A stretch of 64,000 nucleotides of DNA. Source: Lyophyllum atratum. Lineage: Eukaryota; Basidiomycota; Agaricomycetes; Agaricales; Lyophyllaceae. Under the pieces are notes generated by a model. The model saw only the letters and a program-made list of their open reading frames with translations. It had not been told where the DNA came from and did no database searches. Where the stretch lies: assembly GCA_014905825.1 (NCBI GenBank), contig JACGCN010000043.1:1-64000 (forward strand), read 5' to 3'. Position numbers and translations under genes: made by a program. Shown here one piece after another: positions 35,859-55,500 of this stretch (position 1 is the stretch's first letter; every line of letters begins with the position of its first letter).

Positions 35859-36256
35859 GATGCGACCTCAACATGCTCCTTTCTGATCTCTTGATACTTC
35901 CTCGAATATTTGAGTCGAAGGGCGGAGTTGGTTGGTGTCGGAGACCTGGGTGGTGTCGCTGGAACGTGAACAGGCGCTAGCGTGGGGAATGCGCAGTGTG
36001 AGCGCGTATGTTGTTGTGAATTATGAGAGCTTGGAATTCCTGATTCCTCGCATGATCAGCTTTTGAGTTTTGACGCCTTGGTCAGGATTGAATGACCATT
36101 TCCCACTTACACAGGCATTTACGAAGACACAACTTGATTCGCACATATAAAAGCTGTGGCACAAGAGAAATATATATAGGTATACATCCACATCCACAAA
36201 TCAAACACGATGAAATACGTACCACTAGGACTATGTAGCAGTTTACTCACTGCAGA
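35859..36256. other. Intergenic, 3' flanks of UPF0014 copy 2 and FunK1 copy 1
   Basis: The right 130 bases (from about 36120) resemble the flank at 61715-61882 beside FunK1 copy 2 (shared pieces such as ACACAACTTGA and AGGTATACAT), so the FunK1 duplication extends beyond the coding region. Confidence 0.5.
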
Positions 36257-38590
36257 CTATTGCAGCAACGCGATCGCAGCGTGAACCGGTGCAAGAAGGT
36301 CATCGTGGGTCAAAAAGGTTGGGCGGAAGGGGTCGGAAGCCTTGTACACGAGGTATTGGAGAGTTGAGAAAAGATTGATGAGCGGGGGGCTCATGAAATT
36401 CTTGATTATGGCTTCGAGGTCTCCATATTTGGGAAATTTCAGACCATCTGAGTTACTCTGCCTCTGTCCAGCGATCTTCCTGGCAGTCGTTTGGCTAAAG
36501 CTCGAGCCAAATATCTCTTTAAGATCGGCAAATTGGGCCCGGGCCTCTGGCGGCGCGGATTTATCGGAAGCCCGACGGTGGAGACTGCGCAATACACAGT
36601 ATGACAGTACCCAGATAAAAGATTCGATGTCGTGTCGCGCTTGATGTACGGTATCACCGGAAGCGTCCAGAATCTGCACGGCCATGAACTGAGCAGTTCC
36701 CTATTTGATGCCTTGAGCTCAATAAGGGAAAATCCCGTATCTAAGATGACCTACCGTCATATTCGCGCCCCGTTGAACCGTAACCGTTGATGCAAACTTC
36801 GTGTGTGTACTGGTTGTCTCCTGTCTTTTGTAAAGGAAGCGCCCCTGATCATCGTACTTGTCCTTCGGACTGATAGTCCTCTTGACGGTCCTTTCGGGTT
36901 TGGTGAGGGACGAGCTTCCAACGCGGGCAAACTCCAGGTCGGTAATGAAGCCTCGGAATGAAGCGTTCGGATTTGCGGTGAGCAGGACGTTACCCGCGCT
37001 GATATCGCGGTGAAGGATGCCTTGATCGCACAGATCCTTGTGGGCTGAGGGGCGGTAAGAGAGCGTTGTGAGTGATGACTAACGAGCACCCACCTTTGAG
37101 GGCATCGCGGAAGCCCGTAAGCAGCTCACGGTCTGTCGTATACTCCCAGAGCGGTCTTCCGACAGTGCTAAGTACGAGACGGTGGAGAACGGGCGTCGGG
37201 GGATCAATCTCACCGACAGGGTGTCCGCGCAGATTCTGGACCGTGATGGGGTATCCGTCAATACAAACGTCACCACCGCATTCAAACTTGGCCAGTCCTT
37301 CAGGAGGCTGAGCGATCGACATGTAGATATCAGACTCAGGCGTCATGGCACTGCTGCGCCACGCCGTCTTCAAGACCATCTCATTCCCTCCAATACATGG
37401 CTGCTTGCCAACCTCCTCCACATACTCACAAACACGCCAGACGTTAGTGCCACGGCCCAACAAAGACAGAGATGTCCAAATCGGGGGCCCGATAGTGCAC
37501 CATCTGCGGGGATCTTTGCCAACAGATCTCACCACCGCGGAAGGGTACACTGGCACCTGGCGAGCATCAGTTATGCCAATGAGCCTCCGGGTCTCGTCAT
37601 CATCCAAAACGGTAACTGTAGGGTCGGATCCTAACTCTTGGATTGATAGATTGCACGCCATACTGCGCACCACGCGAATGAACACCTCAGTATCTTCAAA
37701 CATGTCATAGGCGGGGGAAAACGTGATACCCTCGCGATCGAAAATCCCAACACAGAATTCAGTTCCGGAGATGAGTATTCCGACACAGAAAAGCATGAAA
37801 GGCCGGCAGGACATGAAGAGACGCGCGTATTCGGCAGATTGAGTCACGATGCTGGGCACGGTGCCCGCCGTCGCAGGTTTGGGTCTTTGCTGGTTCGAAG
37901 GCTTTACTTCGCCAAACGCGTCCCGATCGCGCCATTTCTTCGATGTGGACGCGTTCACCCCATACGGGCTGATAATGATGTCGGGACTGCAGCTCTGGAA
38001 GCCAAATGTATGGGACTCCTGCGGTTTGAGCATTGTATCTGTCCTCTGGAAGCTACGAGGTGTGATAGCCTGGCCGAAGTTGGCTATGTAGTTGAACAAG
38101 CGCATCTGTGATGGGGAAGAGTCAGAGAACAGGAGTAGTAAGTCTCAAAAAATTGTACCAGAGGCTCATACATTTCCTGCTCTTCCTCTGATCCATGATT
38201 GCCGCTTGAATCCTCCCTCTCCGTGTCCTCGGCCTTCTCAAAGGCCTCCTCCGCCTTGTGAAGGGCCTCCCACTGCTCTAACTCCTCGACTTCCCGATCC
38301 GAAGCCCTTGCCGCCAGGACCTTCAGAGTTCCTATGTACTCTGCGTTAGCGGCCTTGAAGGATGCCACGCAGCTAGCGACGAAATCATCGTCGACTTTGT
38401 GAGTGCGCAAACGTTTAAACACGGCAGGATTGTCGTAAATCATTCTACTGGCGAGTTCTTTTTTGAGGGCATAATTATCATGAAGTAAATCGGATTCAAA
38501 GAGATACCTCGACGTGTCAGAAGAGGATGAGGAGTTGGAGCTCAGAATGTCACTGTCAGGGGAGATGTCGGACATGTTCAATATGTCCAT
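36257..38590 (-). CDS. FunK1-type protein kinase, copy 1 (5' end abuts a LINE)
   Basis: Member of the fungal-specific FunK1 kinase expansion of Agaricomycetes; substrates unknown. Exons: 38590-38159, 38105-37094, 37044-36755, 36700-36257, giving 725 aa from the last plausible ATG. The catalytic loop is ILHRDISAGNVLL (HRD about 493-495), followed by FITDLEFARV (a DLE in place of DFG) and, after an intron, TAQFMAVQILDASG with RHDIESFIWVLSYCVL, all typical of FunK1. The N-terminal acidic/Ser segment and EEEQEMYEPL precede a 53-nt intron whose counterpart in copy 2 is 54 nt. Beyond 38590 the sequence becomes LINE, so the native N-terminus and promoter may have been cut off. The antisense LINE ORF1 overlaps the first few codons. 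Without a transcript, expression is doubtful. Confidence 0.75.
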
Positions 38591-39830
38591 TGGCAATGGT
38601 GGCAATGCCGCCAGTGTCCCGTCCGCCCCGGCTCCTCTCGCGCCCACGGCCTCTTCTGATCGACGACTGACTCGACAGACTGAGCGCGTTGCGCGAGCCG
38701 CCATCTCCCGTACGAACTCGATGGAGTCCCTTATCGCGGCCCTCGACGATACACGCGACTCCTCTCTCACCGAGATCGGGGATGCTCCCCCCTCTGCCTC
38801 TGCGCCGCCCTCCAAAGGGAAAAGCAAGGCCACCACTTCTAGCCCCGATAAGCCTTCCCCCGTCGGCGGCTCCAGTGCTCGTGCTGCGCCAAAGACTGAA
38901 TCGGCCGCTGCTGGCATCCGCCGTCTTGATGGCAGCTACAACGTCCTAGCCGCTCGTGTCGACACCAACAGTGCGGAGCTGCTGGAGGAGCTTCAGACCC
39001 TCCGAGCCCACATTATCAGCCTTGCTGCCGACGTCGCCAACAACAGTCAACCCCCTGCTCCCTCGCCTCCCTCCTCAGAGCTCACCGTCGCGGTCAGCGA
39101 ACTCATTCGCTCCAACAACGACGCCGTTGCCGCTATCGGGGCCCTGCGAGCCGAAAACCAACAAATGCGCGACACCGTCCTTGCGTTCGACGCTCGGCTT
39201 GGACAGTTCGGGTACGGCCTCGACGACGCCAATCACCGCCTTGACCGCATCTCTGATGCCTTTGACCCCACTGTACCCGACTCCCCGCCTCTCCCCTCCA
39301 ATAAACGTCAGCGTACGTCGACGGGGACCATGGCCCGTGTACACGGTCAGCCATCCCTCCCTCCAATCGCCTTCACCCCTCAACCCGCTGCTGCCCCCTT
39401 CTACCCGGTCACTGGGCCTGTCCACCCTCCTCCGGCTGCAGCGGCCCCGTCGTGGGGTCATACCCACCAGCGTGGCGCCCCTGCTCCAGCACCGCCTGCC
39501 CCGGCCGTGTCTGTTGCACCTCCCACCTCGTCCCTTGGTCCTCCTGCTCCTGCTGTGCCGGGGCCTCCTCACAGCTCGAGCACCAACTTATTTGTCGAGG
39601 TTGGGTCTGTCAGTTGGGGAAAGAACATCACGGGCGAGTTCAAGGCCCTACTGCAACTCGTGCCCAAGCTTGGCCACATCTCGCGTCAGATACGTGCCCA
39701 TCGTGCTCGTCCAGGCTACCTCAAGGTTCAGTTCAACTCTAATATTGACGCTGCCTCGTTTATCGCCATTTGGAGTGCAGGGCCTCGCCCCGCTGGGTAT
39801 GAGAATGTCACGGCGCAGGCTTTAAATTAG
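38583..39830 (+). CDS. LINE ORF1, coiled-coil/RRM-like RNA-binding protein
   Basis: About 415 aa if started at the ATG at 38583; the frame is open back to 38514, but those codons are antisense to FunK1. Ala/Pro/Ser/Thr-rich throughout. A helical region (LEELQTLRAHIISLAADVAN; then VAAIGALRAENQQMRDTVLA) looks like a coiled coil. After a Pro/Ala linker, the last 80 residues (NLFVEVGSVSWGKNITGEFK; YLKVQFNSNIDAASFIAIW) read like an RRM-type fold. Coiled coil plus RRM is the plan of L1-type ORF1 proteins, which bind the element's RNA. There is no CCHC knuckle. Stop at 39830, 29 nt before ORF2. Confidence 0.6.
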   Translation: MSIGNGGNAASVPSAPAPLAPTASSDRRLTRQTERVARAAISRTNSMESLIAALDDTRDSSLTEIGDAPPSASAPPSKGKSKATTSSPDKPSPVGGSSARAAPKTESAAAGIRRLDGSYNVLAARVDTNSAELLEELQTLRAHIISLAADVANNSQPPAPSPPSSELTVAVSELIRSNNDAVAAIGALRAENQQMRDTVLAFDARLGQFGYGLDDANHRLDRISDAFDPTVPDSPPLPSNKRQRTSTGTMARVHGQPSLPPIAFTPQPAAAPFYPVTGPVHPPPAAAAPSWGHTHQRGAPAPAPPAPAVSVAPPTSSLGPPAPAVPGPPHSSSTNLFVEVGSVSWGKNITGEFKALLQLVPKLGHISRQIRAHRARPGYLKVQFNSNIDAASFIAIWSAGPRPAGYENVTAQALN

Positions 39831-39859
39831 AAGGGGTAGATGAGTTAGTAATACATAAC

Positions 39860-42396
39860 ATGTTATGTCCGCGACCACCTAGCATGCGTGTTACTCAAGT
39901 AACCAGTCCCTCCACGTCGTCATCGTCGACTCTATTGTTTAAGTCCTGGAACATTGGAGGCCGGCTAGCGATTGAACTCACCTGCCCTCACTTTCGTCGC
40001 TCTATACAAAAATATCATATCAACTTATTTCAAGAGACACATCTATCTGAGCTACAGCACGAATCCCTCTACATTCCTGAGGGCTACCGTGTTGTCTCTC
40101 TCGCCCGACCGTACAAACAATTATTTGCTCGCCCATGGGGAGGGGTCCTAGCCCTCATTAGGGACAAACTTTGCCTCAACTTCAGGAGCGACCTCTCAAG
40201 CCCAGATATTATGGTCCTTGAGTGCAATGAGTTCGTCTTAATTAATGCCTACATTCTCCCAGAGGATGCTCGCTGGGAACAGTTTACAGACATTGACCCC
40301 TTTGTAAAATTCTGTGAAACCCTGAACCTCGCTTCACACTTGGACAAACCACTGTTCATATTAGGTGATCTGAACGCACGTACAGGCGCATTATCACCCT
40401 CTCACCACATCAGAATCTCAGCTGATGCTGTTGTAAATACACGTGGCCGTGCACTCTTGGAGATCTGCCACGACATGAACCTCGAGATCATGAATGGTAA
40501 TACAACATATGGTGGAAGTGGGGACTATACCTCTATTCAGCCAATGGGAAGCTCAGTCATCGACTACCTCATTACAAACAACATCGGGACTGATCTCGTC
40601 TCCCGTTTTCAAGTCATGTCGTTGGCTGATGGTGAGAGAGACCATACGCCACTTGAACTGGATGTTGTAATACCTGAGCTTGAAGTGCCGCGTCGCAGAA
40701 AGCTTCCCAAGCCTTCTGCGTCAACCACCTCCGACTCTCCTCTGGTCACCCTCACTGATAGCCCCATTGACACGCTACTACAACAAGTGCTTGACTCTAA
40801 GGCAGACCTTCCCTCACGGACCCGACGGCTGTACGGTGAGGTAACAAAAACCTCACAACCAACGGATGTATATGTCGATGGCTCGTGTCATAACAATGGT
40901 CTGCCCCAGGCTCGTGCCGGGAGTGGCCTCTACTGGGGTGAGGCCAACCTGAGAAATGCAGCATACAGAGTCCCTGACGCTCAGACCAATAATCGAGGAG
41001 AGGTTTTTGCTATACTTAAGGCACTACAACTGTCGCACAGTGATGAGACCTTGCATATATTCTCAGACTCTGAGTACGCGATGGAAACAATTGCTCTTCG
41101 TGGAGCTGCAAAAGCAGCTCATGGCTGGAAAATAGTCAATGGTGACCTGTTTAAGGACATTGCTACCCTCCTCCACTCCAGAGAAGCAGCTGTTGTCTTC
41201 AGTCAAGTAAAAGGGCATAGTGACAATGCGAGACATGATGAAGCAGACAGATTGGCAAATGCTGGTGCATTGCTTGAACCTGTCCCACCTTATTGCCCTC
41301 TTATACAAGTCATTCCCCGGACTAGGCCAATTATAGTGTCCTCTGATAAGGTCACATATATTCCATTAAAACCAAAAGGTCTCCCTCCCCCTCCGGAACC
41401 TCAACGTCTGGGTAGTCACAGAAATCGTACCTCAACACATGAAAGGCAAATAGAGCAGAGAGCGCTCATACTAGATGCCAAGACTGAAAAAGATTTCTGG
41501 ATCACGTCCAAGAAGATTATGGGTTCCAAGCAAATGCACGCAGATATCTCGGCTAGTACTCTTAAAGAAGTCTTTGAACTGCGCATGAACCCAATCATTC
41601 CGATACCACTGTCTTTCAACAAAGAGAGGCGTGAGCTAAATCAAGCTATGGCGAACGCTATGCCAAAACGAACAGTTGATACCACCCCAGAACAATTCTT
41701 CTCTGCACCAATAACAGAGGACGAAATTGAGGCCGCTAAGGAGCACTTCCATGACCACTCTGCTGCTAAAAGTGCTTTTGGGTTAGATAAAGTTGGCTTT
41801 GCTGAGCTTGAAGAAATTGACAATGACCAGCTATGTTTGCTGCTCAATGAATGTCTACACAGTCTCGATGCCCCCTCTACTTGGTTAACAGCAGCTCTGG
41901 TTGCAATCATAAAAAGAGGGAAGGACAAAAATGATCCAAGGGAATATCGTGCTATTGGCCTCGAAAGTGTACTACTTAAGCTTATGACACTAATTATTCA
42001 CAAAAGGATAACAGCATGGTGCCTAGCGCGTGACCTCCTCCCCCCATCTCAAAATGGGTTCAGGGAGGGTTTCCGAACTAATGACAACGTCTTCATCTTG
42101 AGGTGCGCCATTGAGCGAGCTCGTGAACAAGGTGTTTCCCTGTATGTTGTCTTTGCGGATATCAGCAATGCTTTCCCATCTACTGAGCAAGCCACACTAT
42201 GGCTGAAAATGCGCAAAATGGGTGCAAATGGACACATATTTGACTGGTTGCGTATGTTGTACCAAAAAATGTCGTATGTTGTCAAACACCGGTCAGAACT
42301 GTCTCCCGCATTTCTTGCGACAATTGGCATTCTGATTGGCGACAACTCCTCTCCTATACTATGGACCCTATACATGGCTGATTTTCATCTGGACCC
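39860..42396 (+). pseudogene. LINE ORF2, N-terminal part: endonuclease, RNase H, RT motifs up to B
   Basis: The first 845 codons and two bases of a 1293-aa ORF2. About residues 30-265 form an APE-type endonuclease: FKSWNIGG, LFQETHLSE, FILGDLNARTG, IDYLITNNIG, DHTPLELDV. Residues about 335-465 form an RNase H: DVYVDGSCHNNG, NNRGEVFAILKAL, IFSDSEYAMETI and HDEADRLANAG. The reverse transcriptase starts near 560, with YRAIGLESVLLKL, QNGFREGFRTNDNVF, motif A FADISNAFPS and motif B-like ILIGDNSSPILWTLYMADF. The RNase H sits before the RT rather than after it, which is unusual. The frame is intact until the LTR element inserted in the codon after HLD; the chance stop 42410-42412 lies in the LTR. 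Confidence 0.85.
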
Positions 42397-42863
42397 TGTG
42401 ATACGGCCGTAATATATATCTTCTCGCGTGAGGAAGTCTTACGTCGGGGAGCGCTTGGAGCGCTCCTAGACCTCGAGCCACCTGCCCTGTCGTGGGCGCA
42501 GCATCGAGGTCGCTCTCGAGCCACATGCCCGATTAAGGGCGCAGCGTCGAGAGGGTGCCATGTAACCCATGGCTTGGGGCGGTATGACCCGACGCCGGGG
42601 CTCTGTGGACCTGGGCCAGGTGAGTTGTCACCCTACCCAGGGTCCACGAAGCCGTCCTGGAGTCGGGGGGGTCGCACCGTTCACCGTTCACGCTGGTCGA
42701 GTAGTCGATGGTGAAAGGGGTGATAGTATTAGTGCGTGTCTATCACAGACACGCGTACAGCAGTTTTGAGTATGTAATGTAAATATGTACAAACAAAGGG
42801 CCCCGGCCCGATCGAACACGCGAATGAGTGGGCGCGGGTATATCTGAATACACCGCCGTCACA
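42397..42863 (-). repeat. LTR (downstream, 3' relative to element)
   Basis: 467 bp, identical by eye to 55029-55495. On the minus strand it starts TGTGACGG and ends ATCACA. It contains two diverged tandem copies of a unit beginning CTCGAGCCAC and ending TCGAG, each with dyad ends. Confidence 0.95.
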
Positions 42864-42875
42864 GTGCCCCCCCGC
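42864..42875 (-). other. Putative polypurine tract
   Basis: On the minus strand GCGGGGGGGCAC lies immediately before the downstream LTR, the position where plus-strand DNA synthesis is primed. Purine-rich but with a terminal CAC, so only probable. Confidence 0.4.
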
Positions 42876-42951
42876 GTGCAAGATCGAGGCAAGGATCAGA
42901 CCCCAATGAGCAGAAAAGAAAACATGCGCAGCGCCAAAAAAAACGAACGAC

Positions 42952-45717
42952 TCAACCCGCGTGCCCCGCACCGCCGTCATCGCCCCCCTGATCGCCAGAA
43001 TCGGCCGCCCTCGAATAATCCCAAAGACCCTCGCGCTTCAATCTAGCAATGCGCCGACGCTGGTTGGCACGTTGCCGCCGGGGAGGGTTGACTGGCGGTG
43101 CTGGGGGACCCCCAAATGTCGTGCCCACAGCCGATGGACCCGCAACGGTGTCTCCTACGCGCTCGCCCAGAGTCACCTGCATGCGCCTAATAAGGGGGGG
43201 CGGCGCGGGTGCAGGGACCGAAAAGGGGGCGGCAAGAAGACGTTCCGCCAAAGGCAGCGGATGGGAGAGGCGCGCGTCCAACGGCGGAGGCGGGTGAGTG
43301 AGGCGATCCACCAGCGCAGATCCGGAGGCAGGTTCCACGGAGCCGGTTGGAACGGACTGACCATACTGTGCCAAAAGGGCGGTGGTCAGCCGAGCGAGGT
43401 CCGCCAGCGTCTCCGCCGAGAAGGATGGTACCGGTACAGGGGCAGGCAGCGACACAGGAGCTCCTGACGTCGAGGGTGCCCGATGCGGACCGCTAGAGTA
43501 GGACCGAGCGGAACGAGAACGGGAGAGGCGAACCCTCGGCTCGCGGCGACTATAACCAGAATCGTAGGAGGCGGGGGAGCGGCTTGGGTACCGGCGAGGA
43601 CTGCGGGACCGTCCACGACCCCAGCGAGGAGGAGTAGGGGACCTACGACGAGGGGACAAGCGAAACGTCCGACGTGGCGATCGCTCACGGGAAGAAGGCC
43701 CCCGTCGAGAACGTGCTTCCCAACCCGGCAGGCTCGACATGCGCTCAGCCGGAGGGGAGTAACCCCGACGACGGGGCCGATACGCAGGGGTAACGCGACG
43801 ATCAGGCGAGCGACGGCGCCGGGGAGGAGATGGGGATGGGCGGGCAGGGCGAGGAGGGGAGCCGCGCCGAACCGACGATAGCGAGCGACGACGAACCGAC
43901 GACAAGGAACGACGACGAACAGACGACAGGGAGCGACGACGCACAGACGACGCCGGGGAGGGGCGAGAAGGCGTAGCCGCAGCAGCAACTGGGGTGGGGG
44001 ACCGGGAGGCTGTTGTCGTCGTCGTTGAAGTCCCCGCAGCCAACTGTGCCTGGATGAACTCCTCAGCCTCGACGGAGACCAACTCGGTAGCCCCTCTAGG
44101 GGGGGCGGACAGTCGCTGGAAGGTGGTGCGAAGGAGGTCTGCACCCTCCTGATTGGTGAGCGACACCCACACCGTCTGGCGGTACATCGTACTTGACTGG
44201 ACGCAGTCGACGATGTGGATCTCCGGGTGGCCTTTTGCGATGTCGAACAGCGCGTCACGCATCTCCGTCCAGGGAACGTTGGGGGCAAAATCTCCTGAGC
44301 GGAGATATGCCTTCGCCAACGGCAGGGACGCAGCTGTTGGAGCTCCTGCTACCCAGGGTTCATCGTAGTCGTCGTCCGAACCCCATGAGAGCTTCACCGA
44401 CTCCGATGAGTACCTTCGGGGCGGGGGGCGCAGTGGTTTGGGAGGGCTTGCCATGACGGCATCCTGATCCGTGGTTACACGAGGCGGGCTCTGCATCTCA
44501 GTGTCTAACAGCGGGGAAGAGCCCTGCAGCATCGCGGTCTCTGTTAGGGCAACGGGCGTGACGGCACCCAGGAGAGGGAGCTTGTCGGCGGGCGGTGGAG
44601 TTGGTTCGCGCAGAGGCACAATGCCCTTCCCCGGGAAGGCTGAGCCGTATACCCAAGAGGAGGAGGCAACTTGTTTCACCTTCCCTTGGGATCCCACCTT
44701 CTCCCAGTAAGAACCCCGAGGCGCTGGCCACCCATATACTCCGGTATTGGATACGAGGCCCGGAAGCGCAGGAATCTTCTGCTCAGAGTACAGCTCACGA
44801 CGGAGATGTCGGTCATACACTGCGTGCCCTTCGTCGTCGGAGTCGAGGTCCTTTGCGCTGGAGATTTTGACGAAATGACCGTCGCCATCGTCGAGGAATT
44901 TGGTCCAATTACCCGTTTGGTTGCGCGTGCTGTAAACGGGAGGCGGCTTGATCCAGGCGACGCGTCCTTCGTACAAACGCTCGACTCGAGGTTCCGGGGC
45001 TAGGAGGGTAGGTTGCACAGGAGGCCACTCATCAGGGTCGGCAACGGGGGTGGCCTCACGGATGGGCTCCTGTCTGGCAGCAGACGGTACACGACGAACG
45101 GTGAACCCTGTCTGATCTGCTACCCAACCGAACGCTAACGGGGCAGCGACGAACTCCTTGCCACCTAGAGATGGGACAGCAGGATGAGGGCGAGGTGCCA
45201 CAAATGGGGCGATTGCCGAGCCATTGCTCAAGGCGATCTCGTCATATTCCGTCGTTCGAAGCAGCTCAGCTTCAGTGCCAGCTACCCACGACTCGCGGGT
45301 GTCGCGAGAGGTGGTCCACACCCATTCATCTAGCGGTTCGAGTTCGCGCACCATGAAGCAAGGGACCCCCTGGCTCATCAGCCATAAAGCATCGTCCCCT
45401 CGGTTTCCGTTGATCCATGCGCCTATAAATCCCTCGTTAGCGGGGAGCACGCCTTCGACCTTCAGGCGCGCCTTCGCCGTCGCCCAATTCTCGTGCAGTC
45501 GCTCAACGAACTCCAGCCAGGCGGACTGTTCCTTCATTCCTCGCTGCACCTCAGTGCAGAGGTCGACAGCTTCCTCGTAAGTGGGGCATTCACCCAGCGA
45601 TCGAACTTGATCAAGAGAGGGCAGGGTCGGTCGCGTATCCCAGTAGTTGGTGTAGGAATTTTGCAGGCGGGCCCGCGCATCGATAGCAGCGGCCAACAGC
45701 TCCGCGCGTTTCACCAT
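42952..45717 (-). CDS. Chromovirus extra ORF3, 921-aa protein with Arg/Ser repeat
   Basis: Lies in the envelope position downstream of pol, but has no signal peptide or membrane segment. I recognise no family. Residues 1-130 are helical and Trp-containing (SYTNYWDTRPTLPSLDQVRS; AWLEFVERLHENW). The middle is Pro-rich with an acidic block (DLDSDDEGHAVYDRHLRREL) and a further globular-looking part (IHIVDCVQSSTMYRQTVWVS; GADLLRTTFQRLSAPPRGA). Residues about 586-740 form an Arg/Ser domain, starting with four near-identical copies of an eight-residue unit (SSVRRRSL) and continuing with SP and RS dipeptides. The C-terminus is basic (RRQRANQRRRIARLKREGLW). This suggests a nuclear, RNA- or splicing-linked protein. 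The frame is open for 2.8 kb, so it is under selection or very young. It starts 5 nt after the stop of the preceding ORF. Confidence 0.8.
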   Translation of the reverse strand: MVKRAELLAAAIDARARLQNSYTNYWDTRPTLPSLDQVRSLGECPTYEEAVDLCTEVQRGMKEQSAWLEFVERLHENWATAKARLKVEGVLPANEGFIGAWINGNRGDDALWLMSQGVPCFMVRELEPLDEWVWTTSRDTRESWVAGTEAELLRTTEYDEIALSNGSAIAPFVAPRPHPAVPSLGGKEFVAAPLAFGWVADQTGFTVRRVPSAARQEPIREATPVADPDEWPPVQPTLLAPEPRVERLYEGRVAWIKPPPVYSTRNQTGNWTKFLDDGDGHFVKISSAKDLDSDDEGHAVYDRHLRRELYSEQKIPALPGLVSNTGVYGWPAPRGSYWEKVGSQGKVKQVASSSWVYGSAFPGKGIVPLREPTPPPADKLPLLGAVTPVALTETAMLQGSSPLLDTEMQSPPRVTTDQDAVMASPPKPLRPPPRRYSSESVKLSWGSDDDYDEPWVAGAPTAASLPLAKAYLRSGDFAPNVPWTEMRDALFDIAKGHPEIHIVDCVQSSTMYRQTVWVSLTNQEGADLLRTTFQRLSAPPRGATELVSVEAEEFIQAQLAAGTSTTTTTASRSPTPVAAAATPSRPSPASSVRRRSLSSVRRRSLSSVRRRSLSSVRRGSPPRPARPSPSPPRRRRSPDRRVTPAYRPRRRGYSPPAERMSSLPGWEARSRRGPSSRERSPRRTFRLSPRRRSPTPPRWGRGRSRSPRRYPSRSPASYDSGYSRREPRVRLSRSRSARSYSSGPHRAPSTSGAPVSLPAPVPVPSFSAETLADLARLTTALLAQYGQSVPTGSVEPASGSALVDRLTHPPPPLDARLSHPLPLAERLLAAPFSVPAPAPPPLIRRMQVTLGERVGDTVAGPSAVGTTFGGPPAPPVNPPRRQRANQRRRIARLKREGLWDYSRAADSGDQGGDDGGAGHAG

Positions 45718-45722
45718 TGCAG

Positions 45723-46157
45723 CTACGTACTTAGGCTTGAGACGACTGGTTGAGGAGTCCCAGACCTTGTAGACTCCTCACGTTTCGCAAAGCCAATCGT
45801 CGGTCGTAGGATGAAGCCTCTCCAGACCTTCTCGCTGAGGTACTGCGGCGAGACAGTAGGGTCGAACCGCCCGAGATGCCCATCGAGGCGCCGATGAGAC
45901 ATTATACTGTCTGGACGAAGGTTAACTACCTCAGGGGGAGTTCCTGGGAAAAACGGAGTCTGCTTGGAGTTGCAGGACCATAGTAGAAAACGAGGACCAG
46001 AGCGTCGGACGCGAACTATCCGACCGCAGAGTTGACTCAAGGAGGGAGTCTCCACTCGGTGGATGGGAAAACGGTGGTCGATGACCGGCGCGTCCTCATA
46101 ACCCGCATAGCTACGGAGGCGAGCAGTCGAAAAATGGCGAGAGTCTGGCGTGCTCAT
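45723..46157 (-). CDS. Chromovirus extra ORF2, 144-aa protein
   Basis: Starts MSTPDSRHFSTARLRSYAGY and ends SSLST at TAG (45725-45723). Rich in Arg, Ser and Pro; pieces such as HRVETPSLSQLCGRIVRVRR and FFPGTPPEVVNLRPDSI suggest a short beta-rich fold. I recognise no family, and there is no membrane segment. It lies 338 nt after the Gag-Pol stop and only 5 nt before the ORF3 ATG in a different frame. Its length alone is not proof, but its placement makes a real gene likely. An alternative is that it is an upstream exon or leader peptide of ORF3. Confidence 0.55.
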   Translation of the reverse strand: MSTPDSRHFSTARLRSYAGYEDAPVIDHRFPIHRVETPSLSQLCGRIVRVRRSGPRFLLWSCNSKQTPFFPGTPPEVVNLRPDSIMSHRRLDGHLGRFDPTVSPQYLSEKVWRGFILRPTIGFAKREESTRSGTPQPVVSSLST

Positions 46158-46495
46158 GAAGGCAGGAACGATATACGGTAGATTTTAGGTGTTTAAGTCG
46201 GATAGTAACGTCAACGCGCTAGCGTGGTCACTAGATCCGAGAAGCTAGCTGGCTACTCCGCAACGTCGACACCAGTGGAGTGGTCGCGGGTAACAGTCTG
46301 TCGCAACGTCGATCGCAGTAGCGAGGTCGCGAGGTAAGACCAGTCGTTCCGCAACTTCAACGCGGAAGCGTGGTCGCGAGAACGGGCGGATGGTATAAGG
46401 TAAGGAGAGGGGAGATGGAGAGAGATAAGAAGAAGAAAGAAATCAACACCGGAGATAGGTTCTCGGGGAACTCCGAAATTCCCATCACGTGATCG
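46158..46495 (-). other. Spacer between Gag-Pol and extra ORF2 with repeated motifs
   Basis: Non-coding 338 nt. On the plus strand, degenerate repeats of a CAACGTCGA or CAACTTCAACGCGG half with a GTGGTCGCGRG or GAGGTCGCGAG half occur near 46225-46390. Similar halves occur in the element leader. Confidence 0.5.
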
Positions 46496-49400
46496 TTAAA
46501 CGAGACCGTGCACGCCGAGGTATTCCCGTCTAAGGCGAGGGGCATTCCTGAGGTCGTACTCGGTGACCCAACTATCGTCGGCTGGGTCATAATCCTTCCA
46601 TCGAACTAGATATTCTCTCCGATTGCTAGACTTACGTCCCGTGAGTCGGTGTCCTAAGATAGCTTCCACCTCGTATTCCTCAGAAGCAATAAAATCGCGA
46701 GTCGGGGGCAAGGTGGTTCGTTCCCCAAACTTGGGGTCAGACGGGGTATATTTTCTGAGATGCTCTAAGTTGAACACCGGGTGCATGGGGTAAGTATCCG
46801 GTAGACGGAGGCGATAGACCATAGGATTTATCTTTTCCATGACTTCGAAAGGACCGATTGTACGTTGTACTAATTTCTTCCCGGTTCCCTTGACGTCCAC
46901 CAATTCGAGGGAATGGGGGTTGACTAGAGCCCAATCACCTTCTTTGAATTCCGCAACGGGTCGACGGTTCTTATTGTAAGCCTTAGCTTGTCGTTCTTGA
47001 GCTAGAACGACAGCGTCCCGTGCATTCTTGCGGTGCAGGTCCATGGCTACGATAAAATCCTCGGCCTTCTGGCTAGCCACAAACGGACGCGCAACCGGGT
47101 CCAATTGAGGAGCAACAACGGAAGCGGAAGTATGAGGCTTGTATCCCATAAGTAGAAAGTCTGGGGAGTACGACGTGGAAGAATGTACAGAGGAATTATA
47201 TGCGTGGGCAAGGGCAGACAGCCAACGCGCCCAAGAAGCTCTATCAGTAGCTACGTAGGCGCGAAGCATTTGCTCGATGGTTGCATTGAGTACTTCGGTT
47301 TGCCCGTCCGTCTGTGGGTGGTGGGCCGACGAAAGGGCCATCACACTCCCATAGTTTTCGACTACGGATCTCCAGAAAGCTGTAGACCAGCGTTTATCAC
47401 GATCAGCTATTATGCGTTCGGGTAATCCGTACACATTGGCGACTCGTTCGACAAAGAATTTAGCGAATCCTTCTTGGCTTAGCGTCTCGTGTGTAGCAAT
47501 GAACAGCGCGTACTTGGTCAGTTTGTCCACAATGACCAGTATGGCTGTATATAATTCATCGCCCGAAGGAGGTAGCCCCGTAATCAAGTCGAGGGATACT
47601 GTCGCAAATGGTCTAGCAGGTATGTGAGCGGGTCGCAGACCTCCCATTTTCCGAAGATGATCCACTTTGATTTTCTGGCAAACATCACACGATACAGTGA
47701 ATTCGTAAACATCTTTGCTCATGGAGGCCCAAAAGAAAAGGTCCTTGAGTCGGGCTAGGAATCTTCGGGGTCCAGCATGTGCGCTCTCGAATGGGGACTC
47801 GTGTATCCACCGTAGGACATAGTTTACCATGGCTTTCGGTACGCACAGTCGGGCATTCCAGTCCGCGTCGATGAAATAGAGTAATCCGTTCCTTCCCATC
47901 TGAAAGTGGGAAGGAGTGAGGAGTTTGTCCGCATTGGGTATTTCTTCTAGGTATCGCGTTTTGAAATTACTATCCAGCGGGTATGCTTGGACGAACTTAT
48001 CCACCAGTTCTTGACTCATAGACACTAGTAGATGGGACCTGTTCGACCAATCCTCTTCAGGAGCGATTTCCGGGGCCTTGACACCCGCAGGGTAAGTCCA
48101 AGGATCATTATTTGGGAATGGTAGTTCATCCTTCTCCGTTTCCGCAACATCCGGTTCCGCCGACGGGGAATCTTCCTTGTTAATAAGGGAGTCCGCATCC
48201 ATATCGGCTGAAGGGTCGTCGGAAAGAAGGGGAAGGGTCTGTTCAGTAACATCTTCCTCTGCTGCTGGGGGATCGCTCTTTGTAGTAAGAGCGTCCGCGT
48301 CCGAGACAGCAGAAGGGTCACTTGACCGAGTCGGGTTGAGAGTAGCATCCAGCCTTTTCTTGGCTTTACGAGTAAGGACAGGGTAGGATTCCTTGTCGAT
48401 CACGTCTTCCCACCACCATACAGCAAAGACAGCTTTCTTTGTGGGAGCATGAGAAGTAGCGTCCTCGAGTGTTTGGGCACGATCCTGGGAAGCTTGGTCG
48501 GGTACGATGGGAGGTATATCATCTCTCATAGGAGAGTTGTGCTGCGGTATTCGAGGTAGTCTGGACAATGGGTCGACGTTCGAATGTATCCGTCCGGGTC
48601 TGTGGACGATTTTCAACCCGGGGTAAGCAGCATACACGGCCCCCCACGCAGCCAACCTTCGATTAGCGTTCTCGTATACGCGTGCCCATTGTAGTGCCGC
48701 GTGGTCGGTAACGAGAATGACAACCTCCCCTTCAATGAAGGGCTGGAATTTAACTAAGGCTTCCTTAGCACCTAAGGCTTCACGCTCGGTCGCGCTATAG
48801 TTGCGTTCAGCCTGGGCTAAGGTCCTACTCCAGTAACAGATCACACGTTCGACACGAACAATGGTTTCGTCCAGAGTCGCCCCCCACGCAGTGTCATCCG
48901 CCAACCCCTCGTCCACATCTTTGGATAAGACGGGAACCAGGGAGGGGACACTAGCGCCGGCGCTCCATGCCTTAGACAGACGCTCGTACATCGGGGTGCC
49001 TTTCAAGTCGCCCACAGCTAAGGCTTGCACTTGCTGCAGGCTCGCGCCCAGAGCGAAGTCCGAGGCATCGGTATACAGGCGGTAAGGCCGACCTCGCTCA
49101 GGATGTCCTAATACTGGCGCGCTGGCTAAGGCCTCCTTGATCTGGCGGAAGGCGATTTCGTGTTCGGCCACCCACTGGAAACGAACTCCCTTCTTGAGAA
49201 GACCGAAAAGCGGAGCCGCGAGAAAGGAATAATAAGGTATATAAGCGGAGAAGTAGATGACCATGCCCAGGAACTTCTGCAGGTCTGCTATGGAACGCGG
49301 ACGGACCAAGTCCATGATAGCGCTCACTTTCTCCTGGTGGGTGGAGAGACCTAGTCGTGACACCTTCTGGCCCAGAAGGAGGATGGAGGCGTAGCCGACA

Positions 49401-52400
49401 AAGCACTTCGGGGGGGACAAGGTAATGCCCGCATCCGCGATGGCTCCGAGAACTTGGTCCAGATGGAGTATGTGGTCATCCCAGGATTTAGAGTACACCA
49501 CTATGTCGTCTATATAAACGAGAGAGAAAATCCATAGGAAGGGCGACAACACTCCCGGCATTATACGCTGAAAGATTGAAGGACCATTGCGCAGACCGAA
49601 CGGCATGCGTTTGAACTGGAACAACCCCAGATGGCAACGGAAGGCCGTACGAGGCTTCGCCTCGTCGGCCATATCCAGCTGCGTGAAACCCGCTAGAGCG
49701 TCGAAGACAGACAACACTTGCGCTCCTGATAAAGCCTGGACGATTTCGGACTGGCGAGGAATAGGGAACTCGTCAGGAATGGTCTTCGCATTTAGTTTAC
49801 GGTAGTCGACCACCAAACGCGGTTTCCCGTTGCGGTAGACTACCACAACCGGAAATCCCCAAGGGCTACGCGAAGGTTCAATGACGTCGGCTTCAAACCA
49901 AGCTTTAATCTGTTTATCGATTACTTCACGCTTAGCCGGCGACGCGCCGTACATTGGTACCGAGATAGGGTTCGTCCCAGGTTGCAGAGGAACGTCTACC
50001 TGGGCGTTAACCTTCCCTAGCCTTCCGTCAACTCCAAACGCCAATTTGTTTTTTCGCAGGACTTCCAGAAGTCTGGGCCTTACATCGTCAGGGATATCGG
50101 GACCAAGATTAACCAAATCCGCGATGTCGCCGTCCACGGGTTCATCCGGAAGCGCCGTAGTCTTGGGGCCCCAGTTGTCGTCAGCATTAAGCTTATCTTC
50201 CGTCGCAGGCGGCTCGGACGTCTTCGCGTTAGCGAGGTCCTGAGCGCGCAGCGTGCCCTCAATGACGGTACGGAGGGTCTCCGCGGAAGCAGCCAGCTTG
50301 TTCCATTCGTCTTCCGATTTGGGCTGATCAGCGTATGTCGAAGGGTCCTTGAGGTATCCTACAATTTCGCCCTTGCGAATATACCATGGATTCGTACCCG
50401 GATTGGCTACAGGCAGGTAGGGGACGGTCTTACTTATCCAGGTAGTAGGGGCAGACATAACTGAAGCATCTGGATTACCGATGAGGATTTTTTCGACGAT
50501 CCAGTCCTCTCTATCTCCGAAGGGAGCCTCTACGTGAACATTATGAACAGATCCAGCAGCGATCAAAACATCCTTGGTTGCGACAACGGGGGGGTCGGTG
50601 TTTCCAAAATCTTTGGCTAACGCACGACCTCTTCTCACCGCTTTAGCACGCACGAAAGATTGAACTCTGAACGCTTTGCGAATCTCGAATCCGAGATCAA
50701 CTTCTAGCGCAGTTGACGCTGGGATGACAAGGTCCGAGTTCCCAACTAACACTTCGCAGTGTCCGGTGGCATGGCGTGTGAGTCCAAGCTCGTAGGTGGT
50801 TTGAAAGTCTTCCCCGAGGAGCAAGGGAACCTTCATATCCCGCACCACATAAGCTTCGAGATCGAAGCTCACGATGCGGTGGTCGGCAGATTCAGCGTAG
50901 AGGGTAGTTTTAACATATCCTAGGACTTTAGCGTTACCAGTAAGATGATACAGTTTGATGCGTAGTCCGTCCTTAGGAGTTGGCAGCCCCAGCGTCTCCC
51001 AATACTCTTCCGACATCAATGTTATGTCGGCGCCAGAATCCAACCGTCCTTGGATCGGCTCGCGATCGATGGCTCCTACCCGAGCTTTGATATGCAAAGC
51101 TCTAGTCCCTAAAGAGCCGTAACCATCCGGAAAGGACCTCGCCTTCCGAGCCGTAACGATTTCCACGTATGGCGGGGGAGGTCCATAGTCAGGTGGCGGA
51201 GGGCTCGTCGGGCGAACCGTCTTCGACGCTTCCTTTCGAGCAGTAAACATCACTCGTCTGCGGTAGTTGCGATTGTCTCCGTAGTATGCACTGGGAAAAG
51301 CATCCGCGAGGTACACGTAAGCCGTTTTCTCTTCAGATTCTGATAGTGGTTCACTCGTAGAATAAGCGGAAGAAGAGATCTTAGATTCAACTATCATCGC
51401 TAAGTACTCCCGATCATGTTGAGCTACTACATCGGGATCCAAGTCAACAGTAATGAGGTGCGCCGCGCGCAGGGAATCCCATTTACCGTAGTGGACGCAT
51501 TCACGAGCGAAATGATAAGGGCTAGTGCAAATATAGCAGGATCCATTAGGGGTCCTAGCGCTTTTAACGGAGTCGTCTCGCGCAAAGGAATAACCATTGA
51601 CGGTCTTTCCTTCAGGCCAAGGGCGCTTCTCGCCGGAAGCTTTAGAAGTGGGCCTTTGCCGCCGCGAATTGACAGCTAAAGCTTCCTTGTCCTCATCGGA
51701 AGAGGTTTCCTCAGTAGCTTGAGCTACCTCTTTGGGTTCGGTATCAACAGTGTGTACGTTGCGACGTCCGCCGTTCCTGTAGGAGGTATTGCGATGGGAA
51801 TCGGTTTTCCTCGCCTCCATAAGCAACCATGCTCCCACAAGGGTATCACCCATGCGGTTAGCGGTCGCTTGGAGTACGAAAATCGAAGGGCATAGCGTTT
51901 CGTTGAGTATATTGTCCCACTCGACAGGTTTGGTACGCAGTATCCGCGCTACGGCTCGTATGCCGTCTATTTCGTGTTCCTGAGGATAGAGGAAAGAGTG
52001 GTACTTGATGCGCCGCTGGATAAAGTCCACCGGGAACTCCTTCTCCTCTCCCTTCTGTCGGAATCGCATTTCCTCGAATTCGAAGGTGCGCTCCCGAACC
52101 CAATTATCGTCTAGGAAATAAGCGCGAATGCCCAACAGCATAATGTTCCAGTCTTGACTGAAGTATCTGCGATCGGCAGGCGGTAAAGTGTCCCACCAAG
52201 CCAAGGCGCGAGAGGACCACTTCGAGGGAGCCATCTGGGCTAAGTTCTCCCGCATCCGTTGTCCTAGATCGGCAAGCTTGCCCATAGCACTAAGGTAATC
52301 TATTGTGGTGCTCCCGAATCCGTTCCATACAGGTATGGCGGAGAGATTCAATTTATGGTTTAGCTGCCATTCGTCAACGTGATTCGCAGCGTTAGGGTTG

Positions 52401-54601
52401 GGAGCCCCGCCGCCTCCGCCTCCAGGATTTCCGCCGGGGGCGCCCCCTCCAGGAGCGCCTCCTCCGGGCGGTCCGCCGGCACCACCTCCTCCGTTACCTT
52501 CACCGCCCGGTCCTTGACCTCCGGGGGGACCTCCACCAGGGGGACCTCCGCCGGGGGGACCTCCACCAGGGGGACCTCCACCAGGGGGACCTCCACCGGG
52601 GGGACCTCCGCCAGGGTGACCACCGCCAGGGGGACCTCCACCGGGGGGACCACCGCCAGGGGGACCTCCACCGGGGGGACCTCCGCCAGGGGGACCTCCA
52701 TCTGAGGAACCTCCGCTAGGGGGTCCGCCTCCTCCGGAGTTGTTCAGATGCGGAGCGGCCTGATACGCATGGCTGGTCCACGAACTAGGAGGGGGAATCC
52801 GGTTGGGATCTACCATTCCTGGTTGGAAGCGCATAGTCGCGAGAGAAGCGGGAGGCTGTATCTTCAATGGCCCCCCAGATCTAGTTTCCTCCTCTGGAGT
52901 AGAGAAGACCGAGTCTTGTCGCTCATACGGAAGGATGGAGCCTACACCCGGCAAGTTGGTGATGGCGTGGTTCTTAGTTATAGTTGATACCGATTCCGGT
53001 ATTTGGAATCGTAAGTTTCGCTCCTTGAGTACCGTCGAAATGGAAGGAGGGTCGGTTCGGGCGAAGTTAACAGAAGTGTTCGAATCATAACGACCTCCTT
53101 CTCCTGTAGGGGTACGAGTTCCTTCCGACGATGATGTCGGGGGCATCGTTTTCGATTGACGAGCACGATGATGGTATATGGCTCCAGCATCGTATTCGAA
53201 TTCCCCAGCAAGGAGTTTTCGTTGGGCAGCCGCCAGAGGGTGATCGTCAGAAAGTCGATAGTTCGGTCGAGCGAGAAGTTGCTTCAACTCTTCTCTAGGG
53301 GAACGAGTCCCGAAGGCGGACCTAATGGACGTCCTGGTAGAATCATGGGAACTGATAGAGTCCAGATCATCAGGACGATTGAAGATTCGATCCAGACTCT
53401 TGAAGAAGTCCTGGATGTGCTTGACGGCGACCATCGTTCTCTCCTGGAACGTAGTAACTGTAAGGAGGATATCGGTTCGGTGGTCGTTCCATCCCAGTGA
53501 ACGTAAGGCTTGGAACCCAACGTCCAGCCTGAATCTTCTTTTGGGTCCTAGATTGAGGAACTCCGCATAGCCGTCGAGGATCTGATGGACAGCGAGGAGA
53601 ATATGGGCGATCTCCTCCAGTCGAGGCAGATTCAGGGAATATTTAGAAGAAGATCCTTCGTAGTGAACTAGGTCCTTGCCCGAGAGCGAAGTTCGGCCTA
53701 ACTTTCTGACCGCGGCCTCCAAGTTCTCCCACCTCAAGTCATAGTGAGGGGTTTCCCATCGTATAAGCAGATTGCGGACGATATCTGATTCCCTCTTGCT
53801 GTGACCTGGGAGTATCCCTTCCACGCCCCCATAGCGCATGAGCGGGTCGTAGTCTTTGGAGGAGTCATAGGTCTTATGGAACCTATAGACCGAGCATTCG
53901 AGCGGCTCGTTCCTAAGAGTTATCGTGCCGAGGTTCGCTAACCCCTCGAAGATGAAAGGATGCGAGTTGTACAACGCAGGCTCAGACTCCGAGCGAGCGT
54001 CCGAGTCTTGGCGCATACGACGGTTCTCGGGAGGGGGAGTCGGCGTCGGATCGAGAAGGTGACCTAACGACGGGGCTGAGGAGACCGATCGTTCATCGGT
54101 AGTCATGTAATCCGAGATCCTCGAAGCCGCACTAGCGACCATGGAAGAGAGGGCAGGGAACGTTTGATCGTTCATCACTGAACCCTCGAAGGCCTTGTTG
54201 GAATGAACTCGACCACCGAAATCGAAATGAGGGGGAGATTCCTTGGGCGCTGGAATGAAGTTCGATTCCTCCTCCAAGATTGGTCCTTGGAGGGGTAGGG
54301 TAGGCATAGTCGGAGCATCCTCACGATCCGGGACGGTCTCCACCGAGGGAGACCTGTTCCCGGCAGGGACGGCTCTGGCTTTACCCTTGGTATCCAGCTC
54401 GACGAGAGCGGGAGTAGACTTGATGGACGCAACAGATCCTCCGGCAGAAAGAGCCGGGGTAGCGTTGAGACGCGACGACACTCTCTTCTGAGGGCCTGGA
54501 GCGGCGGCTGCAGAAGGAGAAGAGGTTCCCGAAGCTGCCGGCTTCGGGCCAGGAGGGGGTCGTCCTTTACCGAACATGTCGTTTTCTTCAGAGCGTTGCA
54601 A
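46496..54601 (-). CDS. Chromovirus Gag-Pol polyprotein, single 2701-aa ORF
   Basis: Gag occupies about residues 1-1050. It contains a long Gly/Pro repeat (GGGPPGGGPPGG type, about 620-740), a capsid-like part (LADLGQRMRENLAQMAPSKW; FEEMRFRQKGEEKEFPVDFI) and the zinc knuckle CYICTSPYHFAREC near 1020. The aspartic protease motif is RLDSGADITLM near 1190. RT (about 1545-1710) has RLVVDYRKLNAKTIPDEFPI, FDALAGFTQLDMA and the YIDD box near 1695. RNase H has LYTDASDFALGASL and ATEREALGAKEAL. An acidic linker with an internal duplication (about 2085-2170) precedes the integrase, which has an H-x7-H then C-x2-C finger (CDVCQKIK), a SLDLITGLPPS strand, IIADRDKRW and HHPQTDGQTE. The end is a chromodomain (YEVEAILGHRL; YLVRWKDYDPADDSWV). 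No frameshift separates Gag and Pol. Start ATG chosen as the first in frame after the leader. Confidence 0.93.
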   Translation of the reverse strand: MQRSEENDMFGKGRPPPGPKPAASGTSSPSAAAAPGPQKRVSSRLNATPALSAGGSVASIKSTPALVELDTKGKARAVPAGNRSPSVETVPDREDAPTMPTLPLQGPILEEESNFIPAPKESPPHFDFGGRVHSNKAFEGSVMNDQTFPALSSMVASAASRISDYMTTDERSVSSAPSLGHLLDPTPTPPPENRRMRQDSDARSESEPALYNSHPFIFEGLANLGTITLRNEPLECSVYRFHKTYDSSKDYDPLMRYGGVEGILPGHSKRESDIVRNLLIRWETPHYDLRWENLEAAVRKLGRTSLSGKDLVHYEGSSSKYSLNLPRLEEIAHILLAVHQILDGYAEFLNLGPKRRFRLDVGFQALRSLGWNDHRTDILLTVTTFQERTMVAVKHIQDFFKSLDRIFNRPDDLDSISSHDSTRTSIRSAFGTRSPREELKQLLARPNYRLSDDHPLAAAQRKLLAGEFEYDAGAIYHHRARQSKTMPPTSSSEGTRTPTGEGGRYDSNTSVNFARTDPPSISTVLKERNLRFQIPESVSTITKNHAITNLPGVGSILPYERQDSVFSTPEEETRSGGPLKIQPPASLATMRFQPGMVDPNRIPPPSSWTSHAYQAAPHLNNSGGGGPPSGGSSDGGPPGGGPPGGGPPGGGPPGGGPPGGGHPGGGPPGGGPPGGGPPGGGPPGGGPPGGGPPGGQGPGGEGNGGGGAGGPPGGGAPGGGAPGGNPGGGGGGAPNPNAANHVDEWQLNHKLNLSAIPVWNGFGSTTIDYLSAMGKLADLGQRMRENLAQMAPSKWSSRALAWWDTLPPADRRYFSQDWNIMLLGIRAYFLDDNWVRERTFEFEEMRFRQKGEEKEFPVDFIQRRIKYHSFLYPQEHEIDGIRAVARILRTKPVEWDNILNETLCPSIFVLQATANRMGDTLVGAWLLMEARKTDSHRNTSYRNGGRRNVHTVDTEPKEVAQATEETSSDEDKEALAVNSRRQRPTSKASGEKRPWPEGKTVNGYSFARDDSVKSARTPNGSCYICTSPYHFARECVHYGKWDSLRAAHLITVDLDPDVVAQHDREYLAMIVESKISSSAYSTSEPLSESEEKTAYVYLADAFPSAYYGDNRNYRRRVMFTARKEASKTVRPTSPPPPDYGPPPPYVEIVTARKARSFPDGYGSLGTRALHIKARVGAIDREPIQGRLDSGADITLMSEEYWETLGLPTPKDGLRIKLYHLTGNAKVLGYVKTTLYAESADHRIVSFDLEAYVVRDMKVPLLLGEDFQTTYELGLTRHATGHCEVLVGNSDLVIPASTALEVDLGFEIRKAFRVQSFVRAKAVRRGRALAKDFGNTDPPVVATKDVLIAAGSVHNVHVEAPFGDREDWIVEKILIGNPDASVMSAPTTWISKTVPYLPVANPGTNPWYIRKGEIVGYLKDPSTYADQPKSEDEWNKLAASAETLRTVIEGTLRAQDLANAKTSEPPATEDKLNADDNWGPKTTALPDEPVDGDIADLVNLGPDIPDDVRPRLLEVLRKNKLAFGVDGRLGKVNAQVDVPLQPGTNPISVPMYGASPAKREVIDKQIKAWFEADVIEPSRSPWGFPVVVVYRNGKPRLVVDYRKLNAKTIPDEFPIPRQSEIVQALSGAQVLSVFDALAGFTQLDMADEAKPRTAFRCHLGLFQFKRMPFGLRNGPSIFQRIMPGVLSPFLWIFSLVYIDDIVVYSKSWDDHILHLDQVLGAIADAGITLSPPKCFVGYASILLLGQKVSRLGLSTHQEKVSAIMDLVRPRSIADLQKFLGMVIYFSAYIPYYSFLAAPLFGLLKKGVRFQWVAEHEIAFRQIKEALASAPVLGHPERGRPYRLYTDASDFALGASLQQVQALAVGDLKGTPMYERLSKAWSAGASVPSLVPVLSKDVDEGLADDTAWGATLDETIVRVERVICYWSRTLAQAERNYSATEREALGAKEALVKFQPFIEGEVVILVTDHAALQWARVYENANRRLAAWGAVYAAYPGLKIVHRPGRIHSNVDPLSRLPRIPQHNSPMRDDIPPIVPDQASQDRAQTLEDATSHAPTKKAVFAVWWWEDVIDKESYPVLTRKAKKRLDATLNPTRSSDPSAVSDADALTTKSDPPAAEEDVTEQTLPLLSDDPSADMDADSLINKEDSPSAEPDVAETEKDELPFPNNDPWTYPAGVKAPEIAPEEDWSNRSHLLVSMSQELVDKFVQAYPLDSNFKTRYLEEIPNADKLLTPSHFQMGRNGLLYFIDADWNARLCVPKAMVNYVLRWIHESPFESAHAGPRRFLARLKDLFFWASMSKDVYEFTVSCDVCQKIKVDHLRKMGGLRPAHIPARPFATVSLDLITGLPPSGDELYTAILVIVDKLTKYALFIATHETLSQEGFAKFFVERVANVYGLPERIIADRDKRWSTAFWRSVVENYGSVMALSSAHHPQTDGQTEVLNATIEQMLRAYVATDRASWARWLSALAHAYNSSVHSSTSYSPDFLLMGYKPHTSASVVAPQLDPVARPFVASQKAEDFIVAMDLHRKNARDAVVLAQERQAKAYNKNRRPVAEFKEGDWALVNPHSLELVDVKGTGKKLVQRTIGPFEVMEKINPMVYRLRLPDTYPMHPVFNLEHLRKYTPSDPKFGERTTLPPTRDFIASEEYEVEAILGHRLTGRKSSNRREYLVRWKDYDPADDSWVTEYDLRNAPRLRREYLGVHGLV

Positions 54602-55028: not shown

Positions 55029-55495
55029 TGTGATACGGCCGTAATATATATCTTCTCGCGTGAGGAAGTCTTACGTCGGGGAGCGCTTGGAGCGCTCCTA
55101 GACCTCGAGCCACCTGCCCTGTCGTGGGCGCAGCATCGAGGTCGCTCTCGAGCCACATGCCCGATTAAGGGCGCAGCGTCGAGAGGGTGCCATGTAACCC
55201 ATGGCTTGGGGCGGTATGACCCGACGCCGGGGCTCTGTGGACCTGGGCCAGGTGAGTTGTCACCCTACCCAGGGTCCACGAAGCCGTCCTGGAGTCGGGG
55301 GGGTCGCACCGTTCACCGTTCACGCTGGTCGAGTAGTCGATGGTGAAAGGGGTGATAGTATTAGTGCGTGTCTATCACAGACACGCGTACAGCAGTTTTG
55401 AGTATGTAATGTAAATATGTACAAACAAAGGGCCCCGGCCCGATCGAACACGCGAATGAGTGGGCGCGGGTATATCTGAATACACCGCCGTCACA
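55029..55495 (-). repeat. LTR (upstream, 5' relative to element)
   Basis: 467 bp and identical by eye to 42397-42863. Followed by the second copy of the GACCC target duplication (55496-55500). Confidence 0.95.
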
Positions 55496-55500
55496 GACCC

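What the first reader, a model, noticed from the sequence alone, without database searches (positions are those of the whole stretch)
42952..46157. Two extra ORFs after pol in a chromovirus, envelope position without envelope features
A 144-aa and a 921-aa ORF occupy 3.2 kb downstream of Gag-Pol. Neither has signal peptide or membrane segments, and I recognise no family. Intact frames in a young element argue that they serve the element, for instance in nuclear targeting, silencing escape or RNA handling. This may be an undescribed accessory module.
Basis: partly seen in the sequence, partly recalled or inferred. Interest (0 to 1): 0.82.

Follow-up and report, generated by a model that had tools for sequence, protein, structure and literature searches.

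The report
Extra RNA-protein-like gene in mushroom retrotransposon
A jumping element in a mushroom carries, after its usual genes, one extra protein gene (broken in two in this copy) that selection has preserved in sister copies and that looks more like a nuclear RNA-binding helper than a virus envelope.

Summary
The element is a young Ty3/gypsy chromovirus of Lyophyllum atratum: LTRs 467/467 identical, 5-bp target-site duplication. In 20 of 23 copies both lie in one frame across the junction; 16 of 23 keep that frame open throughout. The window copy has a short frame-breaking deletion there.

The 23 copies matching the gene are the same 23 whose RT is at least 84% like the window's (capped searches). 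Whole-gene dN/dS between lineages is 0.12-0.24 at unsaturated dS. Protein relatives occur in Tricholomella, Hypsizygus, Gymnopilus, Flammula and Agrocybe.

It has a conserved N-terminal domain, an RRM-like domain (AlphaFold topology; U1A best profile match E 0.0013; but no Pfam RRM) and, in 6 of 9 tested, an Arg/Ser-rich stretch. N-terminal and RRM-like parts are most constrained. Best explanation: an SR-protein-like accessory handling the element's RNA; role inferred. Two of two examined copies of a neighbouring clade carry an unrelated long ORF (PF28437) in the same slot. New variant of a known kind.

The parts
55029..55495 (-). 5' LTR (467 bp, TG..CA)
   Evidence: identical to the 3' LTR over 467 of 467 bases
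42397..42863 (-). 3' LTR (467 bp)
55496..55500 (.). target-site duplication, copy next to the 5' LTR (GACCC on +)
42392..42396 (.). target-site duplication, copy next to the 3' LTR
46496..54601 (-). Gag-Pol, one 2701-aa frame (protease about 50804-51073, RT 49367-49828, RNase H 48629-49174, integrase zinc domain 47666-47842, chromodomain 46520-46675); the listed start is TTG, the first ATG is 24 nt further in
46158..46495 (-). spacer between Pol and the accessory gene; in the window's lineage four hairpin-like repeats by eye
   Evidence: alignment of 9 copies; window spacer, z -2.47, 0 of 100 shuffles as stable
45723..46157 (-). '144-aa ORF': N-terminal fragment of the accessory gene; residues 1-129 homologous, the remainder out of frame
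42952..45717 (-). '921-aa ORF': the rest of the same accessory gene
44641..45717 (-). part of the conserved N-terminal region that lies in the 921-aa ORF
   Evidence: dN/dS 0.07-0.14
44044..44310 (-). RRM-like domain
   Evidence: dN/dS 0.05-0.20
43480..44007 (-). Arg/Ser-rich stretch
   Evidence: (R+S 0.56 over the best 150 aa)

Best explanation
One accessory gene downstream of Pol, vertically kept by a clade of Agaricales chromoviruses, encodes a protein of about 1050-1110 aa: a conserved N-terminal domain found only in this family, a degenerate RRM-like domain, and in many members an Arg/Ser-rich stretch and a basic tail. Most likely it works as an SR-protein-like nuclear RNA-binding factor of the element: it coats the long unspliced element RNA and helps its export, stability or hand-over to Gag. 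Shown: one gene, its clade-wide presence, purifying selection, relatives in other genera, lack of envelope features. Fairly supported: the RRM-like fold. Inferred: RNA binding, nuclear site, role in RNA handling, and how the gene is expressed. The window copy is broken in this gene.
Confidence: 0.4

Rival explanations
1. The RRM-like domain is a protein-binding variant (qRRM or UHM-like) and the accessory protein is a nuclear adaptor: it targets the integration complex or counters silencing, rather than binding RNA.
Against: No direct evidence for a partner protein; the Pol chromodomain already offers a chromatin-targeting part.
Confidence: 0.3
2. The protein is a structural or chaperone helper of the particle, a second nucleocapsid-like RNA condenser.
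For: Basic C-terminal tail and Arg-rich stretch; Gag is already in the Gag-Pol frame with one CCHC-type motif, which a second RNA binder could assist.
Against: No Gag, capsid or zinc-knuckle match in the accessory protein; an Arg/Ser stretch is not typical of nucleocapsids (general knowledge).
Confidence: 0.15
3. A degenerate envelope gene.
For: Position between Pol and the 3' LTR.
Against: Hydropathy maxima of 1.05-1.69 in the 9 family members tested give no membrane segment; the protein is Arg/Ser-rich and conserved as such.
Confidence: 0.02
4. A passenger: a captured host gene or chance ORF with no function for the element.
For: 7 of 23 copies are broken in it, including the young window copy; no host homologue search outside predicted proteins was possible.
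Against: dN/dS 0.12-0.24 across lineages, presence in 23 of 23 copies of the clade, relatives in five other named genera.
Confidence: 0.04

Closest known systems
Fungal chromoviruses and other Gypsy elements with an 'additional ORF with unknown function' (PMC2864245; passages seen)
   Same: Ty3/gypsy elements of fungi with Gag-Pol in one frame and an extra ORF drawn in the element map.
   Different: The passages seen give no sequence family, domain or selection test for those ORFs; whether any is the same gene could not be checked (figure and supplement not held).
ORF3 of bdelloid rotifer LTR retrotransposons (PMC5408684; passages seen)
   Same: Lineage-specific non-envelope ORF after pol, with different ORF types in related lineages.
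   Different: Those are GDSL esterases, DEDDy exonucleases, envelope or transmembrane proteins; none is RRM-like or Arg/Ser-rich in the passages seen.
Plant additional ORFs between pol and the 3' LTR, incl. Retand (PMC7264820, PMC11963269; passages seen) and the orchid m6A demethylase ORF (PMC9289625; passages seen)
   Same: Extra genes kept over many copies, some thought to be nuclear or to act on RNA.
   Different: Retand-type ORFs are antisense with a TRP28 domain; the orchid ORF is a 2-ODD enzyme; here the gene is in sense and RRM-like.
Cellular SR proteins (SRSF family; NXF1 adaptors, PMC4782049, start of abstract seen in a search listing)
   Same: RRM plus Arg/Ser-rich stretch, proposed link to RNA export.
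   Different: No Pfam-level RRM, a long N-terminal domain without known relatives, no canonical RS dipeptide enrichment.
brtn ORF of Botrytis BcGypsy1/Boty (PMC8365987, passages seen; noted as antisense in PMC7264820)
   Same: Extra ORF in a fungal Gypsy element.
   Different: Antisense according to PMC7264820; no sequence comparison was made here.

Membership tests
Ty3/gypsy chromovirus | Gypsy-type Pol with a chromodomain after integrase | tested here: met
   PF00078, PF17917/PF17919, PF17921, PF24626 and PF00385 (E 3.7e-10) in order
Ty3/gypsy chromovirus | LTRs with TG..CA ends and 5-bp TSD | tested here: met
   6 of 6 copies
Retrovirus-like envelope | transmembrane segment | tested here: not met
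   hydropathy only: maximum 1.16 in the window's 921-aa ORF
Retrovirus-like envelope | signal peptide and fusion glycoprotein fold | not tested
   no predictor was run; no Pfam match
SR protein | RRM recognised by sequence | tested here: inconclusive
   PDB profile favours RRMs, Pfam does not match
SR protein | RRM fold | tested here: inconclusive
   topology predicted; matches tied with other ferredoxin-like folds
SR protein | RS domain with repeated RS/SR dipeptides | tested here: inconclusive
   R+S 0.41-0.56 in 6 of 9, 0.27-0.31 in 3 of 9; dipeptides above all shuffles in 1 of 9
SR protein | RNA binding and nuclear shuttling | not testable with these tools
   needs experiment
PF28437 ORF family of the neighbouring clade | profile similarity to that family | tested here: not met
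   hhalign probability 0.4% both times; weak test, few sequences
RRM of the host LINE's ORF1 | profile similarity | tested here: not met
   probability 0.2%, single sequence on one side

The most novel reading that the evidence does not exclude
A clade of mushroom chromoviruses encodes its own SR-type RNA factor, working like a retroviral Rev or an NXF1 adaptor: it recognises structured repeats in the element RNA (spacer between Pol and the accessory gene, and leader) and exports the unspliced genome, and a neighbouring clade solved the same need with an unrelated gene in the same slot.
Probability: 0.15. Interest if true: 0.78.

Novelty: new variant of a known kind. Interest (0 to 1): 0.5.

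Why it matters
Extra genes after pol are known in many LTR elements but mostly lack any assigned function. Here one is shown to be a single, selected gene, with a testable domain prediction (RRM-like), in a saprotrophic mushroom with many near-identical copies. If it is an RNA factor, it would give a fungal case of an element that carries its own RNA-handling protein, and would make the question of how fungal chromoviruses move 12-13 kb unspliced RNA out of the nucleus directly testable.

Tried and rejected
Envelope: rejected on hydropathy. Two separate genes: rejected. An intron joining the two parts, as the NCBI model P0001 (963 aa) implies: not favoured, because 20 of 23 copies are open without one. 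Homology with the PF28437 ORF of the neighbouring clade: none detectable by hhalign; its AlphaFold model was too poor to use (mean pLDDT 40.4). Homology with the ORF1 of the LINE: none. Search of viral contigs: no relative. A shared motif between 5' leader and spacer, lineage by lineage: looked at by eye in 6 leaders and not convincing. CACGTG box upstream of the accessory gene as its promoter: present in 14 of 21 copies, partly overlapping the Pol stop, absent in 3 of 3 neighbouring-clade spacers read; only a lead, and a shuffled spacer has it 9% of the time. Pyrimidine-rich tract: also in elements without the gene. First dN/dS domain borders were misplaced for the RRM-like part (0.04-0.32); borders were corrected from motif positions printed in the same call and rerun. 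The fold of the N-terminal domain was not searched by itself, so nothing is claimed about it. Literature: searches; among the titles and abstract starts listed I saw no RRM-like or SR-like accessory ORF of a chromovirus, but bodies were mostly unread.

Full report
What is there. The window lies in the genome of Lyophyllum atratum: the 921-aa ORF is 100% identical to a protein of that name (P0001), on a contig of the same length, 397604 bases. On the minus strand lies an LTR element from 42397 to 55495: two identical LTRs of 467 bp, TSD GACCC, a 2701-aa Gag-Pol with RT, RNase H, integrase, an SH3-like domain and a chromodomain, and after it the two ORFs of the finding. The element sits inside a LINE (ORFs at 38514-42412).

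One gene, not two. A six-frame search of the genome with the 921-aa ORF gave 27 matches at 23 elements; the 144-aa ORF gave 23 matches, at the same 23 elements. In 20 of 23 the two stretches lie in one frame across the junction; in 16 of 23 the frame is uninterrupted throughout. Of these 16, 15 were measured from ATG: 1052-1114 aa. The 7 broken copies are the window, C75:2156244 (interrupted, with a second part at C75:2168656), C122, C82, C2, C65 and C75:991199. In the window the break is a short deletion, not a multiple of three, relative to the nearest copy. Copies are not all independent: several are near-identical.

It belongs to a clade. An RT search scored 95 of 293 candidates. The 23 elements with RT at least 84% identical are exactly the 23 with the gene. 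The next group, about 67% identical, has no match to the gene; in 2 of 2 loci read (L038, L039) another sense ORF of 930 or 948 aa from its ATG stands in the same slot. The protein database labels its relatives PF28437, an entry our Pfam copy does not match. In 2 of 2 loci read of the 57-61% group no sense frame over 400 aa stands there (L040, L041). In an RT tree of 17 rows the four gene-bearing rows group (99/99) and the six 57-61% rows group (100/100); the five 67% rows were not resolved as a clade and the root is unsure because of two very long outgroup branches.

Age and selection. Six of six elements tested have LTRs without a mismatch and 5-bp TSDs, although they differ widely: among four of them RT identity is 86-95% and accessory-protein identity 35-55%, with dN 0.04-0.10 against 0.40-0.80 (dS saturated). 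So the gene evolves fast relative to RT. Yet in nine pairs with dS between 0.1 and 1.25 whole-gene dN/dS is 0.124-0.239. Higher values come from small samples: 0.65 for the N-terminal fragment of the window against the nearest copy (12 changes), while the same fragment gives 0.10 against L004; and 0.35-0.78 for near-identical pairs. By part, in six pairs: N-terminal 0.07-0.14, linker 0.08-0.42, RRM-like 0.05-0.20, Arg/Ser stretch 0.16-0.36, tail 0.13-0.29.

Relatives elsewhere. Searches with the ORF and with a family alignment found proteins of Tricholomella constricta (P0003, 1027 aa, one frame containing both stretches), Hypsizygus marmoreus, Gymnopilus dilepis, Flammula alnicola, Agrocybe pediades and three unnamed sources. 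Only the 8000 or so candidates sharing most words were scored, so the spread is a lower bound. Whether they lie in elements could not be read. Conserved motifs include RRFDGHLG.FD.T..PQ, GAWING and PCF.VH.

Expression. The spacer before the gene is about 330-390 nt in the copies read in full and contains short repeats that differ by lineage. The window's spacer folds better than all 100 shuffles (z -2.47); other spacers were not folded. No conserved splice site was apparent by eye. A CACGTG box is present upstream in 14 of 21 copies but is not decisive. How the gene is expressed is open.

Mechanism. The most economical reading is a nuclear RNA-binding accessory that escorts the unspliced element RNA. 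Position, selection and domain are shown or fairly supported; binding, location and role are inferred. The main rival is a protein-binding nuclear adaptor.

Comparison. Extra ORFs after pol are a known kind: rotifer ORF3s, plant aORFs, and fungal Gypsy elements with an 'additional ORF with unknown function'. What is added here is that it is a defined, selected gene family with an RRM-like domain, replaced by an unrelated ORF in a neighbouring clade.

Noticed in passing
38514-42412 and from 55496: The element is inserted in a LINE whose ORF2 has endonuclease, then RNase H, then RT (PF00075 at residues 336-470, RT at 690-842), an unusual order since RNase H commonly follows RT (general knowledge).
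   Followed up: no
L038:1044-3833 (+) and L039:709-3552 (-): Chromoviruses of the 67% RT group carry a 930-948-aa ORF of family PF28437 in the same slot, with no detectable similarity to the gene of this finding.
   Followed up: partly
46158-46495: Spacer between Pol and the accessory gene with four hairpin-like repeats; other lineages have different repeats there.
   Followed up: partly
54979-55028 and loci L042-L046: Directly after the 5' LTR all six leaders read share ATGGTGGGGGCACCGCGGACTTCA followed by an inverted TGAAGTC: a likely primer-binding site with a hairpin.
   Followed up: no
52401-52757: Gag holds a tandem 15-bp repeat coding for a Gly/Pro-rich tract.
   Followed up: no
36249-38371 and 61875-64000: A direct repeat about 25.6 kb apart, 83-96% identical in pieces, flanks the region; the ORF at 36990-38105 resembles fungal FunK1-type kinases from memory only.
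   Followed up: no
33650-33908 and 35500-35758: Two copies (77%) of a short coding stretch of a membrane protein.
   Followed up: no
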